IMG/VR virus record: IMGVR_UViG_3300049855_000084
Coordinates: 1 to 28,077 of that record
Source: a virus
Length of the DNA stretch: 28,077 bases
Reading direction: 5' to 3' (one strand)
Shown here one piece after another: positions 1-8,920 of this stretch (positions are counted from its first letter, which is position 1; each line of letters opens with the position of its first letter). Position numbers and translations under genes: made by a program. The notes beneath the pieces were generated by a model. It had not been told where the DNA came from. It saw only the letters and a program-made list of their open reading frames with translations, and did not search any database.

Positions 1-1967
1 CGAATAGTCCACAGCGGGCTGCCTCCAGAGTTCAAAACCTGGAAACCAGTTGGAGTGTACGCAACGGAATATAAAAAAACTCCGTTGTTATAAATTCCAT
101 GTTGTTCAGTAGACGCGGCGCCTAGCTGATGCTGTTTAAAGATTGCCGCATTGCCGATATATTCAATTTTATTAGTCGGCCTGAATGAAATTGCCGAGTT
201 TACATCGATAGTCGCTAGTGCCGCTATATCGGCAGCCTTTGGAGTAATTCCGGTAAATTCAAAATTACTAGTCGCGGCCAGAGTTCCGAGAACCTTGAGC
301 AGATTATTTAATCGGACGCCTGAGACGGTACCGGACGCAATCGTTGTGGTGGATATGAGTGCCGCATTTACGCAATCAACCATGCCACCTATGCACGTGA
401 AACTACTAATCGAAGTTAAATCAAAAATCTTTAATACTCCAGCACCTTCGGACCATGGGTTTATTACGGTTACCCCAGGTGCGCCGTTGAGCGAGTGAGC
501 AATCTCATAATTTTCAGAGACGCATGCTAGCAACAAGGTGTCCGGAGCCGATACGATCGATATGCCAATGCCACCAGCCCCCGATAGAGCGCCATCTGCG
601 TAAACGGTATCCATCACACATGAATTAGAGTCTGACCCAAACTGAAAGCCGATGGTCGCGCTCATACTGGTACACATTTCGAGCTTACTGCCCCATCCTG
701 CTTGATGCAGGATGCCCGTTGAGAAGCCGCGAGTGGTAACGCCACGGGCATAAAAACGAGGTGCGCCAAGGGCCAGGATTCCACGCGCATGCCCTGCGGT
801 GGAATAGACCATCAGATCTTGTACCGAAGCCTGATCGCAACCGGTGTAGGTGCCTCCACTGACGCCCGATCCATTAAAGAATCCAGCTTCAGCACTGTAG
901 CGCAGGCCCGTAGCTGCCACAAAGCCAACTATCCGAATTGCAGATTGGTTAGTAGTTCCGCTCTGGAAATAAATTACGGTTCCGGAAACGGTTCCGGCCG
1001 CTGCGTTGAAATTGAATGGTGGAGCGCCGTCACCAATGAGCGTTACGTAGGCCGGAATATAAATTGGAGCGGTCGTTTTATACACGCCACGACCAATCGC
1101 TACTTTGCGACCGTATCGGTATGCCTGTGCTGGAGTCGCAGCAGCGATTGAGGATTGCCCCGCGTAGTCTAATGCCGCTTGGATAGGAGTTGTGTCGTCA
1201 TTGATTCCGTCGCCTTTTGCTCCGAACCACGCAACATTAAGGATTTCACTGAATACGCGATTCCAGCGACCAGCGCCACCAGCGCCGGGTTGAATGATCA
1301 TGCCGCCGATTTCAGTCGAACTATCAGCGCTGTTCCACCGGAACGTACCGCCGCCACCATCTCCAGCAGCATAATAGCCGCGAACTAGATAGGTCACCGC
1401 CGATGCCGGTGCCGTCAGAGCTTTAAGCTGTGCGATTGTATCGATGACCAGCGTCACCGAAGAGTCCGGCAGGCTGGTCACAGATCCGGTAACGGTCGGG
1501 TCTCCTGCGGCATCAAACCAAAAAGCCTTGAGCGCCCGCAGTGCCTTAGATGGCAAAGGCCCGATTGCCGGATCGGTATCCGGCACCGTGATCTGGCGCC
1601 CAACCTTATTCGATACCTGCTGAATCATCCGCACAACGCGATCAAATGCGCGTTCGACCACGTCGGGGAAGAACCCGCTTTGATTTTTGATGCTGGTATC
1701 TTGCAGCAGGGGGATCGTGGATTTGATCACCCACTTGTAACCGCTGGGCAGCACGCCAGCGATGCGCGTCACTGTGCCGCCCGTGGCGACATTGACGCCG
1801 GTTACGCTGTATTCCGTGCCGTAGGTCAGCGTGCGCGAGGTGCCTGCCGTGTCCGTCTCGACAACCACGACCTCGGTTGCCGCGTTGACGGCGAAGGTAA
1901 ATCCGTACGTGGCGGTCGAGCCGTTGCCGGTGTACGGATTTTCCCCGATGGCATTGCTGATCGTCAT
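1..1967 (-). CDS. Tailspike / tail fibre, N-terminal 655 residues (gene continues past left edge)
   Basis: An open frame runs from an ATG at 1967 to the left edge without a stop. Residues 1-130 look like the virion-attachment domain of T7 gp17-type fibres (starts MTISNAIGENPYTGNGSTA). Residues 248-258 read FGAKGDGINDD, the hallmark start of the pectate-lyase-3 right-handed beta-helix, followed by Gly/Asn-rich short strands. By family this is a trimeric spike that binds and often cleaves a surface polysaccharide (O-antigen or capsule); catalytic residues cannot be assigned because the C-terminus is missing. The gene is AT-richer than the other virion genes and rich in GGA glycine codons (about 20 by eye), which suggests a separate origin for the receptor-binding part. 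It is preceded by a 311-base gap holding RNA genes on the other strand. The start gives a full T7-like N-terminus; no strong Shine-Dalgarno is visible. Confidence 0.9.
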   Translation of the reverse strand, partial: MTISNAIGENPYTGNGSTATYGFTFAVNAATEVVVVETDTAGTSRTLTYGTEYSVTGVNVATGGTVTRIAGVLPSGYKWVIKSTIPLLQDTSIKNQSGFFPDVVERAFDRVVRMIQQVSNKVGRQITVPDTDPAIGPLPSKALRALKAFWFDAAGDPTVTGSVTSLPDSSVTLVIDTIAQLKALTAPASAVTYLVRGYYAAGDGGGGTFRWNSADSSTEIGGMIIQPGAGGAGRWNRVFSEILNVAWFGAKGDGINDDTTPIQAALDYAGQSSIAAATPAQAYRYGRKVAIGRGVYKTTAPIYIPAYVTLIGDGAPPFNFNAAAGTVSGTVIYFQSGTTNQSAIRIVGFVAATGLRYSAEAGFFNGSGVSGGTYTGCDQASVQDLMVYSTAGHARGILALGAPRFYARGVTTRGFSTGILHQAGWGSKLEMCTSMSATIGFQFGSDSNSCVMDTVYADGALSGAGGIGISIVSAPDTLLLACVSENYEIAHSLNGAPGVTVINPWSEGAGVLKIFDLTSISSFTCIGGMVDCVNAALISTTTIASGTVSGVRLNNLLKVLGTLAATSNFEFTGITPKAADIAALATIDVNSAISFRPTNKIEYIGNAAIFKQHQLGAASTEQHGIYNNGVFLYSVAYTPTGFQVLNSGGSPLWTI

Positions 1968-2037: not shown

Positions 2038-2065
2038 TTGCGGATGCGACGACGTTTCATAGAAT
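2038..2065 (+). promoter_or_regulatory. Candidate sigma70 promoter for the plus-strand tRNA unit
   Basis: TTGCGG at 2038-2043 and TAGAAT at 2060-2065 are 16 bases apart. The -10 box matches TATAAT at five of six positions; the -35 box is weak. Transcription would start near 2072, four or five bases before the first base of the tRNA. All flanking protein genes run the other way, so the tRNA needs a promoter of its own, and this is the best candidate I see. The TACAAT at 2071-2076 touches the tRNA and is too close to serve. Confidence 0.4.
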
Positions 2066-2076
2066 GAGAGTACAAT

Positions 2077-2150
2077 GCAGGCATGGCATAGCGGCTGTGC
2101 ACCGGGCCTCCACCCCGGCTAGTCGGGTTCAACTCCTGATGTCTGCTCCA
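2077..2150 (+). tRNA. tRNA-Gly(UCC), CCA encoded, C at position 33
   Basis: The 74 bases fold as a full cloverleaf. The 7-bp acceptor stem is GCAGGCA with TGTCTGC. The 4-bp D stem is GCAT with GTGC, its loop keeping A14, G18 and G19. The anticodon stem is CCGGG with CCCGG around loop CCTCCAC. The variable loop has 4 bases. The T stem is TCGGG with CCTGA around TTCAACT. The 3' end is T73 plus an encoded CCA. Anticodon UCC, U73 and G1:C72/C2:G71 are bacterial glycine identity features. The oddity is C33, where U33 is almost universal, plus an unusual T21. The gene is antisense to all neighbours and lies next to the GGA-rich tailspike gene. A minus-strand ORF over it (2025-2240) reads RHQELNP, the kind of spurious peptide seen opposite tRNA T-arms. 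Confidence 0.87.
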
Positions 2151-2159
2151 GCGAGGGTT

Positions 2160-2240
2160 GTAGGTTGGGTGCCCCATCGCCAGTGAAACTCTGGCTGGCC
2201 CGCAAGGGCGAGGGCTGAGGTTGAAATCTCGGCAAACCAC
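2160..2240 (+). ncRNA. Cloverleaf-like structured RNA of unknown function
   Basis: Ten bases after the tRNA CCA, four helices follow one another. A closing stem pairs GTAGGTT (2160-2166, A bulged) with AACCAC (2235-2240). Inside it are GCCAG/CTGGC with a 7-base loop (2179-2195), GCCC/GGGC with a GCAA tetraloop (2198-2209), and GCTGAG/CTCGGC with an 8-base loop (2214-2233). A very small GGG-TGC-CCC hairpin sits where a D arm would be. The order resembles a class II tRNA (anticodon-like arm, variable arm, T-like arm). But the loops lack tRNA consensus bases, the acceptor stem is bulged and no proper CCA end follows. It may be a degenerate tRNA or a different structured RNA. It shares strand and terminator with the tRNA. 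Confidence 0.45.
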
Positions 2241-2279
2241 ACGACGAACCCCGGCCTTACCGCTGGGGTTCGTCGTTTT
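2241..2279 (+). terminator. Intrinsic terminator of the plus-strand RNA unit
   Basis: ACGACGAACCCC (2241-2252) pairs perfectly with GGGGTTCGTCGT (2265-2276), a 12-bp stem with a 12-base loop, followed by a T run (2276-2279). The T run exists only on the plus strand, so the hairpin best terminates the tRNA transcript. It abuts the stop codon of the minus-strand giant gene, so the stem would also form at the end of that message. Confidence 0.7.
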
Positions 2280-5200
2280 CAGCGAGGCTTGCCGAACAGC
2301 ATCACGCGAATGGCCGCAGCCGGGTCGCCCTTCTTCTCTGCGGTTTCGATGCTGTCGATGATGCGGTTGATCTCGACCGCTGGCAGGCCAAGGAGCGCAC
2401 CGCTGGCACCGATTGCCGCCTTGAGGGCCGCCTTGTCGACATCACCTTGGCGAAGCTGCAATACCAGCCCGTTGGCCACGTCGAACGACCGCAGACCAGC
2501 CGGGCCGCTGTAGCCGAATCCGCCCTGGACGGCTCCGCCGACTTCGCGCACGCCGACCAGCATGCCCATGCCGTAGGCGACTTGATCCGCCGCCATCTGT
2601 TCAAGGCGCTTCTTCTCGTCCTTGTCCTTCTCCCCGCGCAGGAATCCGGTCAGCAGGCCGGATGCCACGGCGGGCAGCGTCCAGACCAACAGGGTGTCAG
2701 TCCCGGCCCGTAGCCAGGAGCGCGGGCTGCTTGGGTCGGCGCGCACCTGCTGCACTGCCTCGCGCTGCAAGTTGTACGTGACGTTGAAGTACGAATAGAA
2801 CGCCGTCAGCACCTTGCTGGCCTCGCCGCCGCGTTGGAATGCCGACAGGTCACCGATGCGGCCAGACCCTTGGGTGTCGAGCACCGTCTGATCAGCGATG
2901 GCAACGGCGTCGGCTTCTGCATCGGCCAGCGGCTTGCCCGCCTTCAGCCCTTCGGCCATGCCGCGCTCATAGGCGCCAATCCATGTCACCGTGTCCACCG
3001 CCTGCTGGACCTTGTGCATCGGGTAATAACCCCAGCGGCGTACGGCGGCCAGCTTGCCCTCGGGCTCTACCCGTCCGGTGGCTTCTTGCAGGTTCTGGAG
3101 CTGTGTGCTGGCCCGCTGGCGCATGGTGCTGGACTTGGCCTTCACCCAGGTTGCCGATGCCTCCATGTGCGTGGCATCGCGGAACACGCGAGCGAACGCG
3201 CTGCCCATGTAGCCGGCGCCCACACGGGGGATCGACTGCGCCAAGCCGGTGAGATTCACCAGGGCGGAAGTCAGGTTGAAGCCGAATGTGGCGGCGCTGC
3301 TGTTTTTGCGCAGGCCGCGCAACAGCCGCTCGCTGGCGCTGCGGGCCGGCTTGTCGCCCACGGCGATGTCTGCGGCGGTGTTCACGAACTGGTCAAGCGC
3401 CCCGCGTCCGTAGCGGTCAATGATCGCCTGCGACAACGCGGCATCACGCAAGAGCTTGTTCTGGTCGATCAGCAATTCCCGGTGCGTGATGTCGTGGATG
3501 ACCTCGGACAGGTGTTCGCCCACGACGCCGAAGTCGAGACGCAGGGCCAAGCCGCTGACATCGCGTGCGCGTTGCTTGGTGTGGCCGCGTCGGGTCTGAT
3601 TCGAGCCCATAGCAGCGCGAAGGGCCTGCTTGGCGTCGGCTGCGGCGTTCAGGTCGCCGGCCTTGCTGCTTAAACGCTGGTCGTATTTGATCGGGTAGTA
3701 CCCGCCCGCCTGCCGTCCGAATCGGCTATCGATCGGCAGGGCTTCGACCTTCTCGGGGGGCAAGCCGGTGGTGCGCTGTTCGATGGCGCGGATCTCGCTC
3801 CAGTAGGAATCGATCTGCTTCCAGGTGGCGTTGACCAGCTTCCAGTCGGCTTCGTCCAGGCTGTCGATCACGGCCTGCATGTCGGCCTTGCCGTAGCCAA
3901 GCTGGCCCAGGTACATCAGCACGCGCTGACGACCTTCCGCATTGCCCCAGTTCAGGACCAAGCCCAGGCGCTGCTCGTTGTTTAAACGCAAACGGGTGCC
4001 GGGGATGTCTTGGCGGCTAATGCCCGCTGATTTCTGCCATTCCTTGAAGTCGGAATCGCGCAGCAGGGTGGCCGAAGACAGCAATTCTTGCTCGGCTGCG
4101 GATGCTTCGTTGCGTGGGCGGATGAGGTATTCCCAGACGGGGCCGGCATTCTGGTAGCCGTCCATTTCACGCGCCAGGAAGCTGTCCTTGCGGTGGTCTT
4201 CAAAATACCGCACGAATCGATCCTGAGCGTTCTCCGTCCAGGTCGTGCCGATGCGCTTGACAACGGTGCGCGTGGCGTGCTCATTGATGCCGCTGACGAG
4301 CAACGCGCTGGCCTCTTCCAGCTCACGCTTGGCGCGATCTTTCAGCAGCTTGTTCTTGAGCTTGGCCAGGTGTTCGACGTTGCGCACCGCGTCCAGCACC
4401 TCGGCTTGTTCGGCTACCGTCAGGTCTGACCAGTTGCGCCGGCCCAGGTCGGCAATCACCTGCTCGCCAATGTTGACCGGCTCGCCGGCATCCTCTTGGC
4501 GAGCGATCCACGATTGCAGGCTTTCACGGCGACGCAGCTCGCGATTGCTGACGCGGCGCAGATCGTAGCCCTCAAGGATGTTGTCGATCTGCTCCAGGTA
4601 GCCATTGGTGCGGGCGAAGCTGAAGCCGGGATTGCTGGCCACGACCTTGCGGGCGTCATCGATCGACGGCACGACCTGCGCCGCGTTGCCGATCTCATCG
4701 TAGACAGTGAACTCCCAGCCACCGGCCTTGCCCAGGCGCTGGCGCGTGTCGAGCGTGTCGAAGCGGTTGAGGTACGTCCGCCCCTTGTCGGATGCTTCCT
4801 TGGCCTCGGTAGCGGCGCGGAACAGGTGCAGGCTGAAGCGCTCTCGCTGGGCGGCGTCGAATGCCTGTCGGTCGTACTTCGCCTGTTGCTCTGGCTTGCC
4901 GTCGCGGGCTTTCGCGGCGGCGCTGAATGCCTCGGCGGACGCCGTACGGGCCGCACGCCAGTAGGTGTCCGGGCGCAAGTTGCTGGCCTTGGTCTTGTTG
5001 ATCAGGTCGCGGGCCACCTGGCGCAGGATCTCAGTGGGCGCGACCTGTTGGCCGACCTTCGATCCCAGGGCCTTCACCTCGCGGTCGAGCACATGACCGG
5101 CGACTTGGTCGGCAAGCTCGCCCTTGGCGATCACGTCCAGGCTTCCATCAACCAGCGGATCGGGATAGCGCTTGGCCATCTCGGCATCCACCTGCTGCGA

Positions 5201-8200
5201 CACGGTCGCGTCGCGATCGGGTGCCGTGGTCAGCGCCATCCATAGGGCGTCGCCGTCCTGATAGCCGAACATCAGCGCGGCATCGGCCAGCGTCATGCCG
5301 CCGTCTGGCGAATAGATCAGTTTCCCGCGGTTGGCCCTGGGCGGTGCGTCCTTGGCCTGCGGGCCGGGCAGCTTGGCCAGGTCGGCAGGGGTGTACGTGC
5401 GTAGCAGGTCGTCCTTGTTGAGCTTGATCCGGCCTTCTTCCGGTGCGCTGTCGCCCAGCATCTCATCCAGGGTCAAGCCCTCGGGTGGTTGGCCGTCCTG
5501 AAGCAAGCGGATGGCCTGATAAACTGGCTGCGCATCGATTTGCTTGGACAGGTCAGCCTTCAGGACTTCCCGCTCACGGTCGCGCTCTTCCGACTCGGCC
5601 AGGAAGTCCGCGTGCATCAGGCGTGCGCGTACGAAGTCGGCGGCGCGATCCTTGCGGTAATCGATCTCCTTGAGGTAGCTGGCGAATTGCTCTTCACTCA
5701 TCCCGGCTTCGGCAGCGGTTTCCCATGGGGATTTGTTGCCGATCTCTTCGCTCGAACGAGCGATGGCATCGTCACTGGCCAGCAGGCGATCGAACACGCT
5801 GCGCACCTCGGGCGTCAGGTTGACGTTCAAGGCCAGCACGTCGCGGTAAATCTTGGTGAGCCAGTTCTTGAAGTTGGCGAAGGCGCGGCGCAGGGTCGAC
5901 GACGGGGCTTTGCCCTCCATCAGGTAGCGTTCAAAGCCACGGGCGAATTGCTCGTGTTGGTCGACGGTGAACGCGGATTTCTCATCCGCGCCCAGCCAGG
6001 TGCGAATGGTCGCCACGTCGGCAACGATCGAATCGGGCGCGGCACCGTTGGTCGCCAAGTCGTCCAGTATCTCAAGGTAGGCGTGGCCCATCTCATGGAC
6101 GAAGGTTGAGCGATCGGCGCCTTCCAGGAGGCCGACGGAGAGTTCACGGCCGGGGGCGACGTTGATTTTGCCGCGGGCGGGTTGGTCGTAGCTCCTGCCG
6201 TTTGCCGCATCGATCTTCGCCGCCTGCTGTACCAGCGAGTCCCATTCCTCCGACTTGGGCGACGGAGTGCGGTCGCCGTTTGCCTTCTTCCACTGCTTCA
6301 CCAGTGAAACGTATTCCAGTGAATGGCCGGGCGCCGCAACGATGCCGCTCTGGAAGAAATTGGCGTTCAGCTCATCGGCAATCCGTTGCTCTTCCTCGGT
6401 GGTCGCAACGGGCTCGCTCTTCAACACTTTGAACGTGTCGGCAAGGTGCCGCTGTGCGACCGCCTCGGCGATGATCATTTCCTGGTTTTTGAGAATCCAC
6501 CGGCCGGCCTTGATGGAGCTGATGTCCTTGCCTGCGGCGTGACGATTGAACGCCTCGTCGAGTTGCGCCGGGGTGATGCCGTCGTCCATTGCCGACTTGA
6601 CCCAAGCCCCGCCCACGCGCTTTTGGTACGTGGTGAAGACGGGGTTACCCTGCTGATCGGTCGAGCTGGTAGGCCGTCCAAGCGTGACATTTTCCCCAAT
6701 CGTTTCGCCAATGGCTTCCTTCAGCGTCAGGTTGTGGACGGGCAACGGCTGCTCTTCCAGTGACCGGCCAACGGCTGCCGGATCTTCGCCGCGTCCGATG
6801 CGCTTGATGTACCGGGAATAGATTTCGAAGGGGTCGACGACCGGCGCGGCGGCGCGGGCCTTCTCCAGGGTCGTCTTCCATTCGTCGGATTTCTGATCAG
6901 GAAGATTGCCGGAATGCTCGCGCTTGAAGGTCGCCAGGGCTTCGCGGTCGGCCTGTTCACGAGATTGCGTGTTGAAGCGCTCGGCGAGGTTCGCCATTGG
7001 CTCGGACACCAGCAGCGATTCATTGCGGGCGGTGGTCGCGTCCCGGCCGGCGGCGATCAATTGGGCTTCGACTTCGCTACGGATCTTGGCCCGGCCCGTC
7101 TCGGTGACAGTGTCCACGGGTGCCGCGCTCTGCTCGGCTGACTGCTTGGCCTGCGAGATGGCGCCCTGCAAGAGGGTGCGCATCTCTTCGGTGGCGGTGC
7201 CCAGCTCTTCGCGGTTGAGCCCATCGGGGCGCATCCGGGCCTTGTCCAGCAACGGGCGGTCGTCCTCGGTCGTGTGCGCCAGGAAGCCAGCCGTCGGCAC
7301 CGGAATAGCGCTGCCTGCTGCCCGTGCGGCTTGGTAGGTGGCCTGATCGACACCCATCTGCACGGCCATCAGCTCGGGGTCGGCGCCCTTGGCCTCGTAG
7401 TGGGCAACGAAGTCCTCGGACTGGAAGTAGGTCGTGGTTCCTGCGGTGCCGGTGTGGCGCTCCAGCAGGTGCTGCAATTGCTCGGGGTTGCGCGTGCCGG
7501 TCTTGCTGCTGCGGGCAAGGTCGAACGCCGCGGCCAGCCCATCGGCTTCCAGGGTTGATTGACGTAGCTGCACGGCTTCGCGCTGCCACTTGTCGCGGGC
7601 GACCTGCGGGAGATTGAAGACGGCGCCGGCAAGCCCGCCCACGGCACCAGCGGCGGCCAGGCGTGGCAAGAGTTGGTCGGCTTTCAGTGCGTTCGGATTC
7701 TGCCCGCTTCCCACTTCGAACAGGGCGTGCCCTAGTTCGGTGGTCGCCTCTTCGGTCGCCTCCATGCCGGCATCAAGCAACAGGTGCTTCGCGGCAGGCA
7801 GCCAGCCATCGGCACCGGTTGCCAGGTGATCGACACCGGGGACCAGGGCGCGTTGAATGCCGGTGCGACCGAATGCGCCAGGGATGAGGCTTTCGATGAG
7901 GTAGTTTGCCGCCCCTGAGCCCGCGCCGTTCTGCTGTGCGTCGGCCAGCCCTTCGCGGATCGCCAGCGGCTGGACCGAGGCGACGGTTGCCGCGAACGTT
8001 CCGGCAGCCTTGGCGGTGCGCGTGCCTAGCAGGGTAGCGACCACGGCACGGGCGCGGCTCGCCTTCATCAACGCGGAAGCACCCTCGGCGAGGGGACCAC
8101 CTGCCAGCATGAGTGGTAGATCGGCGGCAAGCCCACCGACGCCACGCTGAATGCTGCCCGACAGGCCGGGGGAAAGCTGTTGCGATGCGGCGGCCAGATC

Positions 8201-8920
8201 GTTTGCCGCGTTCCTGCCGTCGCTGGTCTGCGTGCCGATAGCTGCCTGGGTAGACGCCAAAGACGAGGCGGCACCGGCCACCAGGTTGGACGCCGGGCCG
8301 AAACGATCTTGCAGCTTCGCCGCGTCAGTCTCAACGGCAGCTTGGTCGAGCCCGATATTCAGGCGGCGCTTCGCCAGCTCGTGGTCGAGGTCGGCCAGCG
8401 AGTTGTACACCGTGGCGTTGCCGTCGCTGTGCAGCTCGTTGATGGTGCCGCCAGGGCCGAATTTGAAGCCCTTGGGCAGGATGCCGAAGGGATCATCGCC
8501 AGGGCCGGCGACCAATCCGGCCACGGCTCGATCGAGATGCCGCAGCACGGGCATGTCATCCTGAGCAACGGCCATGTTGCGCGGATTCGCCAGCCAACCG
8601 GCCAGCTCGGGGTGCTCACGCTGCGTGCGCTCCAGATCGATTTCGCGCACCTTGGCCTGACGCTGCACCTCGTCGAGGTTCCTGTCGACCATATCGGCCG
8701 GCAGCCGGGTGGCGGATGCCAGGGCCATCACCTGGGCGGCGCGGTCTGGTGTCTGCTGAAGCCCTACCCTGGCGCTCGCCTGAAGCGCGGCGTCCTTGGA
8801 CGAGCCAAGCTGTTGCACCAGGTCGTCGTAAGGATTGGCGACCGGCGCGGGATCTTCAGCCGGCGTGACGCCAACCGGTGGCAGGGTGGCAACCAGGGCA
8901 TCATATTCATTTGCTGGCAT
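2279..8920 (-). CDS. Giant internal virion (injection) protein, 2213 aa, with HEMGH motif
   Basis: This very large protein is encoded last in the internal-core cluster, where T7-like phages place gp16. By position and size it is probably a virion protein ejected into the host ahead of the DNA. It is mostly helical, with Ala/Gly-rich stretches near residues 210-440. Residues 942-946 read HEMGH within STFVHEMGHAYLEIL, an HExxH zinc-protease-like motif of the kind found in large polyvalent phage proteins. The last 500 residues hold hydrophobic helices (near SALVNLTGLAQSIPRVG and LLVWTLPAVASGLLTGF) that could insert into the host membrane. I see no lytic transglycosylase motif like that of T7 gp16. 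At 2213 aa it is far longer than gp16 (about 1320 aa). Its start overlaps the upstream gene by 14 bases. Injection role likely; enzymatic role only inferred. Confidence 0.88.
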   Translation of the reverse strand: MPANEYDALVATLPPVGVTPAEDPAPVANPYDDLVQQLGSSKDAALQASARVGLQQTPDRAAQVMALASATRLPADMVDRNLDEVQRQAKVREIDLERTQREHPELAGWLANPRNMAVAQDDMPVLRHLDRAVAGLVAGPGDDPFGILPKGFKFGPGGTINELHSDGNATVYNSLADLDHELAKRRLNIGLDQAAVETDAAKLQDRFGPASNLVAGAASSLASTQAAIGTQTSDGRNAANDLAAASQQLSPGLSGSIQRGVGGLAADLPLMLAGGPLAEGASALMKASRARAVVATLLGTRTAKAAGTFAATVASVQPLAIREGLADAQQNGAGSGAANYLIESLIPGAFGRTGIQRALVPGVDHLATGADGWLPAAKHLLLDAGMEATEEATTELGHALFEVGSGQNPNALKADQLLPRLAAAGAVGGLAGAVFNLPQVARDKWQREAVQLRQSTLEADGLAAAFDLARSSKTGTRNPEQLQHLLERHTGTAGTTTYFQSEDFVAHYEAKGADPELMAVQMGVDQATYQAARAAGSAIPVPTAGFLAHTTEDDRPLLDKARMRPDGLNREELGTATEEMRTLLQGAISQAKQSAEQSAAPVDTVTETGRAKIRSEVEAQLIAAGRDATTARNESLLVSEPMANLAERFNTQSREQADREALATFKREHSGNLPDQKSDEWKTTLEKARAAAPVVDPFEIYSRYIKRIGRGEDPAAVGRSLEEQPLPVHNLTLKEAIGETIGENVTLGRPTSSTDQQGNPVFTTYQKRVGGAWVKSAMDDGITPAQLDEAFNRHAAGKDISSIKAGRWILKNQEMIIAEAVAQRHLADTFKVLKSEPVATTEEEQRIADELNANFFQSGIVAAPGHSLEYVSLVKQWKKANGDRTPSPKSEEWDSLVQQAAKIDAANGRSYDQPARGKINVAPGRELSVGLLEGADRSTFVHEMGHAYLEILDDLATNGAAPDSIVADVATIRTWLGADEKSAFTVDQHEQFARGFERYLMEGKAPSSTLRRAFANFKNWLTKIYRDVLALNVNLTPEVRSVFDRLLASDDAIARSSEEIGNKSPWETAAEAGMSEEQFASYLKEIDYRKDRAADFVRARLMHADFLAESEERDREREVLKADLSKQIDAQPVYQAIRLLQDGQPPEGLTLDEMLGDSAPEEGRIKLNKDDLLRTYTPADLAKLPGPQAKDAPPRANRGKLIYSPDGGMTLADAALMFGYQDGDALWMALTTAPDRDATVSQQVDAEMAKRYPDPLVDGSLDVIAKGELADQVAGHVLDREVKALGSKVGQQVAPTEILRQVARDLINKTKASNLRPDTYWRAARTASAEAFSAAAKARDGKPEQQAKYDRQAFDAAQRERFSLHLFRAATEAKEASDKGRTYLNRFDTLDTRQRLGKAGGWEFTVYDEIGNAAQVVPSIDDARKVVASNPGFSFARTNGYLEQIDNILEGYDLRRVSNRELRRRESLQSWIARQEDAGEPVNIGEQVIADLGRRNWSDLTVAEQAEVLDAVRNVEHLAKLKNKLLKDRAKRELEEASALLVSGINEHATRTVVKRIGTTWTENAQDRFVRYFEDHRKDSFLAREMDGYQNAGPVWEYLIRPRNEASAAEQELLSSATLLRDSDFKEWQKSAGISRQDIPGTRLRLNNEQRLGLVLNWGNAEGRQRVLMYLGQLGYGKADMQAVIDSLDEADWKLVNATWKQIDSYWSEIRAIEQRTTGLPPEKVEALPIDSRFGRQAGGYYPIKYDQRLSSKAGDLNAAADAKQALRAAMGSNQTRRGHTKQRARDVSGLALRLDFGVVGEHLSEVIHDITHRELLIDQNKLLRDAALSQAIIDRYGRGALDQFVNTAADIAVGDKPARSASERLLRGLRKNSSAATFGFNLTSALVNLTGLAQSIPRVGAGYMGSAFARVFRDATHMEASATWVKAKSSTMRQRASTQLQNLQEATGRVEPEGKLAAVRRWGYYPMHKVQQAVDTVTWIGAYERGMAEGLKAGKPLADAEADAVAIADQTVLDTQGSGRIGDLSAFQRGGEASKVLTAFYSYFNVTYNLQREAVQQVRADPSSPRSWLRAGTDTLLVWTLPAVASGLLTGFLRGEKDKDEKKRLEQMAADQVAYGMGMLVGVREVGGAVQGGFGYSGPAGLRSFDVANGLVLQLRQGDVDKAALKAAIGASGALLGLPAVEINRIIDSIETAEKKGDPAAAIRVMLFGKPR

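What the first reader, a model, noticed from the sequence alone, without database searches (positions are those of the whole stretch)
2160..2240. Second cloverleaf-like RNA that is not a canonical tRNA
A closing stem encloses a tiny hairpin, a 5-bp arm with a 7-base loop, a GNRA (GCAA) tetraloop hairpin, and a 6-bp arm with an 8-base loop, 81 nt in all. The architecture is that of a class II tRNA, yet the loops lack tRNA consensus bases and no CCA end is in register. It could be a decayed tRNA, a tRNA mimic or a new phage RNA.
Basis: partly seen in the sequence, partly recalled or inferred. Interest (0 to 1): 0.6.

Follow-up and report, generated by a model that had tools for sequence, protein, structure and literature searches.

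The report
Spacer after a phage glycine tRNA
The supposed new cloverleaf RNA is most likely just the poorly conserved stretch between a phage glycine-tRNA gene and its transcription stop signal, possibly a wrecked old tRNA; it is ordinary.

Summary
As one cloverleaf RNA they are not supported. The 81 nt fold only modestly better than shuffles (z about -1.6 to -1.9), and about 7% of all 81-nt windows of this phage do as well. The closing stem has 4 bp and vanishes (probability 0.00-0.04) once the RNA starts at 2151 or earlier. Neither Rfam's tRNA model, nor any other Rfam family, nor a class II tRNA covariance model built here recognises the element. The only close relative found (L003, 97% identical in the neighbouring protein) keeps the preceding tRNA-Gly(TCC), with a compensatory change, and the following hairpin/terminator, but has 75 unrelated bases in between; 79 further IMG/VR loci lack the tRNA. 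Best reading: a structured but non-conserved trailer between tRNA-Gly (2077-2150) and a hairpin with a T-run (2241-2279), inserted antisense between two structural genes of a BPP-1-like podovirus. A strongly decayed class II tRNA stays possible: ARAGORN at 90% threshold reports 'tRNA-Phe(aaa)' at 2155-2240, which 0.28% of shuffles match on that strand. Low interest. The odder item nearby is tRNA-Gly itself, with C33 instead of U33 in both phages.

The parts
2077..2150 (+). tRNA-Gly(TCC) with encoded CCA, antisense to the flanking structural genes
   Evidence: ARAGORN, Rfam RF00005 45.3 bits; in L003 67 of 74 positions identical, with a compensatory C-G to T-A change in the anticodon stem (2103/2117) and a G-U to G-C change in the acceptor (2142)
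   Evidence: no similarity to the 75 nt in the same place of L003 (800 of 1000 shuffles align as well); no Rfam or class II tRNA model match
2155..2240 (+). sub-threshold tRNA-like call: ARAGORN 'tRNA-Phe(aaa)', class II layout, possible pseudogene
   Evidence: appears at 90% of ARAGORN's default threshold, not at 91%; 28 of 10000 shuffles give a + strand call; structure 12.7 kcal/mol less stable than the MFE of the same stretch
2179..2195 (+). 5-bp arm with 7-nt loop TGAAACT (no U33-like base)
   Evidence: probability 0.96 alone, 0.03-0.22 in longer RNA
2198..2209 (+). GCCC-GCAA-GGGC hairpin (variable-arm-like)
   Evidence: mean pair probability 0.65-0.92
2214..2233 (+). last arm, GCTGAGGT-TGAA-ATCTCGGC (6 to 8 bp), T-arm-like loop sequence
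   Evidence: mean pair probability 0.96-0.97 in every context
2241..2279 (+). 15-bp hairpin followed by TTTT: probable intrinsic terminator of the + strand transcript; also directly behind the stop of the - strand 2213-aa gene
   Evidence: sequence, fold; hairpin kept in L003 with shorter stem and T5, one G-C to C-G double change read by eye; 10-bp stem with T tail listed for L003. The window's copy was not listed by the scan.

Best explanation
2151-2232 is the 3' trailer of a small antisense (+ strand) transcription unit in a BPP-1-like podovirus: tRNA-Gly(TCC), about 80-90 nt of trailer, then a terminator hairpin. The RNA would be made as one precursor; host nucleases (RNase E/P and exonucleases, as for ordinary bacterial tRNA precursors) would remove the trailer. 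The trailer's hairpins come from its G+C-rich sequence and are not a maintained cloverleaf. Shown: tRNA, following hairpin, lack of conservation, context-dependent fold. Inferred: co-transcription, processing and lack of function.
For: tRNA-Gly found by ARAGORN and Rfam with structure-preserving changes in L003. The hairpin with T-run follows in both phages. Between them the two phages share nothing alignable, although the flanks are 84-100% identical in the nearest 50-100-nt bins. Fold stability and branching are near the genome background, and the cloverleaf is lost in longer RNA. No match to any of 4227 Rfam families above gathering and no tRNA match in the element at E up to 10. Only short chance ORFs in the element.
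Against: ARAGORN at a lowered threshold sees a class II tRNA layout here more often than shuffles do (28 of 10000, + strand; about one call per 19 kb of other fetched DNA), so the resemblance may not be pure chance. No sigma-70-like promoter was found upstream. Only one close relative is available. No transcript data.
Confidence: 0.6

Rival explanations
1. The element is a strongly decayed class II tRNA gene (Leu/Ser/Tyr-like) that once stood in tandem with tRNA-Gly; it no longer makes a tRNA.
For: ARAGORN at 90% threshold: 7-bp acceptor GGGTTGT/GCAAACC with one G.A mismatch, 3-bp D stem, 5-bp/7-nt anticodon arm, variable arm with GCAA loop, 5-bp T arm with loop TTGAAA. + strand calls in 28 of 10000 shuffles. 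Best pairwise match is an E. coli tRNA-Leu (L210), with shared CCAG..CTGGC, CGCAAGG and GAG..TCTCG pieces. It lies directly behind a real tRNA gene.
Against: Rfam tRNA model silent, whereas intact class II tRNAs score 48-61 bits with it (long rows). Class II model R1 built from 19 tRNAs gives only a 21-nt local match of 5.8 bits with filters off, while the class I tRNA-Gly itself scores 28.8. Pairwise similarity to class II tRNAs is within shuffles (63 of 500). The tRNA-like fold is -21.8 against -34.5 kcal/mol MFE. No U8, U33 or C56 equivalents and a 6-nt T loop. L003 has no such remnant.
Confidence: 0.27
2. The segment is a functional, quickly exchanged small RNA (for example a 3' external transcribed spacer acting as an RNA sponge, in the manner of E. 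coli 3'ETS-leuZ, or a host-specific regulator) swapped between phages as a cassette.
For: Sharp replacement of 82 by 75 nt between conserved neighbours; persistent T-like and GCAA hairpins in every context; 3'ETS-leuZ shows that tRNA trailers can act as RNAs (annotated; PMC5222698 and PMC6191717 came up, not read beyond the search result).
Against: No conserved sequence or structure between the two phages; no further copies in the viral, phage or plasmid searches; no expression data.
Confidence: 0.1
3. A tRNA mimic or decoy that binds a synthetase or soaks up a tRNA-cutting defence enzyme.
For: Only the loose class II layout.
Against: The tRNA-like fold is not favoured, is absent from the relative, and no acceptor CCA is in register.
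Confidence: 0.03

Closest known systems
3' trailer (3' external transcribed spacer) of bacterial tRNA operons, e.g. 3'ETS-leuZ of E. coli
   Same: directly behind a CCA-encoding tRNA, hairpin-rich; 3'ETS-leuZ lies immediately 3' of leuZ in the E. coli annotation
   Different: no evidence that this one is stable or pairs with other RNAs; antisense in a phage structural operon
tRNA pseudogenes in phage tRNA clusters
   Same: adjacent to a real tRNA, rough class II layout in a sub-threshold ARAGORN call
   Different: no score from tRNA covariance models and not shared with the close relative
Bordetella phage BPP-1 / Caulobacter phage SR18 (Rauchvirus) Bbp10-Bbp9 junction
   Same: same neighbouring Bbp10-like gene and a hairpin right behind its stop
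   Different: those phages have no tRNA there; the tRNA unit is an insertion seen only in the window and L003

Membership tests
tRNA (RF00005, class I/II) | score of the tRNA covariance model at or above gathering (29 bits) | tested here: not met
   no match in 2151-2240 at gathering or at E up to 10
class II tRNA (Leu/Ser/Tyr) | full-length match to a class II covariance model | tested here: not met
   model R1 from 19 class II tRNAs: only local scraps up to 5.8 bits with filters off
class II tRNA (Leu/Ser/Tyr) | 7-bp acceptor, D, anticodon, long variable and T arms in order | tested here: inconclusive
   ARAGORN layout at 90% threshold with one acceptor mismatch, 3-bp D stem and 6-nt T loop, but that fold is 12.7 kcal/mol above the MFE
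class II tRNA (Leu/Ser/Tyr) | consensus bases U8, G18-G19, U33, U54-U55-C56 and CCA end | tested here: not met
   A at 8, G at 33 in TGAAACT, TTGAAA in place of TTCRANY, CAC after the discriminator; U33 and the TTC of the T loop are invariant in the 19 reference tRNAs. A G18-G19-like GGG is present.
structured functional RNA in general | compensatory base changes in homologues | tested here: not met
   the only homologous gap (L003) has unrelated sequence; no further homologues found
tRNA precursor trailer | lies between a mature tRNA 3' end and a terminator on the same strand | tested here: met
   tRNA-Gly ends at 2150, hairpin plus TTTT at 2241-2279; the hairpin is judged from sequence and fold, as the terminator scan did not list it
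tRNA precursor trailer | co-transcribed with the tRNA and removed by processing | not testable with these tools
   needs RNA data

The most novel reading that the evidence does not exclude
The place behind the phage tRNA-Gly is an exchange site for short accessory RNAs (sponges or defence decoys) carried as an RNA-only moron in an otherwise conserved structural operon; the window and L003 carry two different ones.
Probability: 0.06. Interest if true: 0.5.

Novelty: not a real feature. Interest (0 to 1): 0.12.

Why it matters
Mostly as a caution: a tidy hand-drawn cloverleaf in an 81-nt G+C-rich stretch can be produced by the choice of ends, and it dissolves when the natural precursor is folded. 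If the decayed-tRNA reading is right, it is one more case of tRNA loss in a small phage tRNA unit. The neighbouring tRNA-Gly with C33 kept in two phages may deserve more attention than the element.

Tried and rejected
Homologue hunts: viral contigs by protein and by five DNA patterns; phages, plasmids and genome contigs gave only L003 as a homologue of the unit. The two extra hits of the tRNA 5'-half pattern (L163, L164) are chance: no tRNA is called there. Weak Rfam hits (RsmY, Twister-sister, rnk leader, mir-6536, BSnc120) are all far below gathering. Opposite strand: z -0.17, nothing. Coding: only short chance ORFs; the - strand 71-aa ORF also runs through the tRNA and its part in the trailer is not kept in L003. 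A solitary CRISPR-repeat-like element was considered; no CRISPR family of Rfam was reported. My own first view that no acceptor stem longer than 4 bp exists was wrong; ARAGORN's reading shows a 6-of-7 one. A count of pairs was mistakenly asked on a protein alignment and gave nothing.

Full report
Setting. The window is a 28-kb virus record of a podovirus related to Bordetella phage BPP-1 and Caulobacter phage SR18 (Rauchvirus). The 2213-aa protein encoded at 2279-8920 on the - strand matches phrog_9880, and its C-terminal third is 35-37% identical to the corresponding proteins of those phages. The next gene on the - strand is a fibre-like gene (3-1967, by position). BPP-1 and SR18 have short junctions there with a hairpin behind the stop codon and no tRNA.

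Observation. Two corrections: the closing stem is only GGTT/AACC, and the last arm can close to 8 bp with a UGAA loop. The excess stability is small: z -1.88 with 6 of 200 shuffles as stable, and z -1.6 to -1.8 in four further sets. Across the window's own DNA, 6.9% of 81-nt stretches reach the same z. A four-branched closed fold occurs in 0.14% of shuffled 81-nt windows; 1 of 1400 sampled native windows has one where about 2 are expected.

Context. Folding only 2160-2240 gives the cloverleaf. Folding 2151-2240, 2151-2282 or the whole unit 2077-2282 removes it: closing-stem probability 0.01, 0.04 and 0.00; anticodon-like arm 0.14, 0.22 and 0.03. Bases 5' of 2160 (GCGAGGGTT...) pair with the anticodon-like arm region instead. 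The last arm (0.96-0.97) and the GCAA hairpin (0.65-0.92) persist.

Comparison. One close relative exists in the viral collection (L003, 97% protein identity). The fibre-gene side is 94-100% identical in each 50-nt bin from 1651 to 2050, and the Bbp10-like gene about 90% at DNA level. tRNA-Gly is kept (67 of 74 positions) with one double compensatory change in the anticodon stem (2103 C to T with 2117 G to A) and one G-U to G-C change in the acceptor (2142), so it behaves like a working RNA gene. The hairpin is kept with a shorter stem and a longer T-run. The 82 nt 2151-2232 of the window face 75 unrelated nt in L003: a global alignment scores no better than 800 of 1000 shuffles. L003's segment has no tRNA match in covariance searches and none in ARAGORN down to 70% of threshold. 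Of the 80 loci found with a Bbp10 alignment, only L003's own record (L083) carries a tRNA; the other 79 have none. Thus the element has no homologue to test covariation on, and whatever is there is not kept within the lineage.

Is it a tRNA? Rfam's tRNA model does not report it even at permissive thresholds. Intact class II tRNAs of a reference genome score 48-61 bits with the same model (long matches). A class II covariance model was built from 19 Leu, Ser and Tyr tRNAs of E. coli K-12 and one other bacterium. With filters off it gives only local scraps in the element, best 5.8 bits over 21 nt, while it gives 28.8 bits to the class I tRNA-Gly next door. Pairwise similarity to the 19 tRNAs is within shuffles (63 of 500 for the best, 40 of 500 for the mean). 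On the other side, ARAGORN at 90% (not 91%) of its default threshold reports a class II 'tRNA-Phe(aaa)' at 2155-2240. Shuffles of the region give a + strand call in 28 of 10000. In 1.43 Mb of other fetched DNA there are 76 such calls, about one per 19 kb, and the window has one more at 6724-6803 inside a gene. The tRNA-like fold is about 13 kcal/mol worse than the MFE and lacks U8, U33, the TTC of the T loop and CCA. I therefore rate a decayed class II tRNA as possible (0.27) but behind a plain trailer (0.6).

Mechanism. Most likely a + strand RNA starts upstream of 2077 (no sigma-70-like promoter was found), runs through tRNA-Gly and the trailer, and stops at the hairpin 2241-2279. Host enzymes then cut at the tRNA ends. 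The last steps are inferred from general tRNA biology, not shown. E. coli's 3'ETS-leuZ (annotated directly behind leuZ) is the known case where such a trailer has a job; nothing here shows the same.

Limits. One close relative, no transcript data, no host known. E-values of the home-made covariance model are rough.

Noticed in passing
window 2107-2113 (anticodon loop CCTCCAC) and L003 6340-6413 (- strand, CCTCCAA): tRNA-Gly(TCC) has C where nearly all tRNAs have U33, in both phages, although its stems are kept by compensatory changes; it may decode poorly or serve something other than ordinary translation. U33 is invariant in the 19 class II tRNAs aligned here.
   Followed up: partly
window 2045-2279: The whole tRNA-Gly unit is an antisense insertion between Bbp10-like and fibre genes, present only in the window and L003 among about 80 related loci, like a moron made of RNA genes.
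   Followed up: partly
window 801-1650: The fibre gene loses identity to L003 step by step downstream of its conserved first part (about 94-100% at 1651-2050, alignment lost near 1250 and below), as expected of mosaic tail fibres.
   Followed up: no
L077 8197-8245 and L078 8221-8285: SR18 and BPP-1 have hairpins right behind the Bbp10-like stop; BPP-1's has T5 on the gene strand, SR18's has its A-run on the gene strand, so it would stop the opposite strand, as in the window (read by eye).
   Followed up: no
L163 4019-4037 and L164 4045-4063: The 19-base 5' half of the phage tRNA-Gly also occurs by chance in two unrelated viral contigs where no tRNA is called there; in L164 it lies inside an ORF of 173 aa (3593-4114).
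   Followed up: partly
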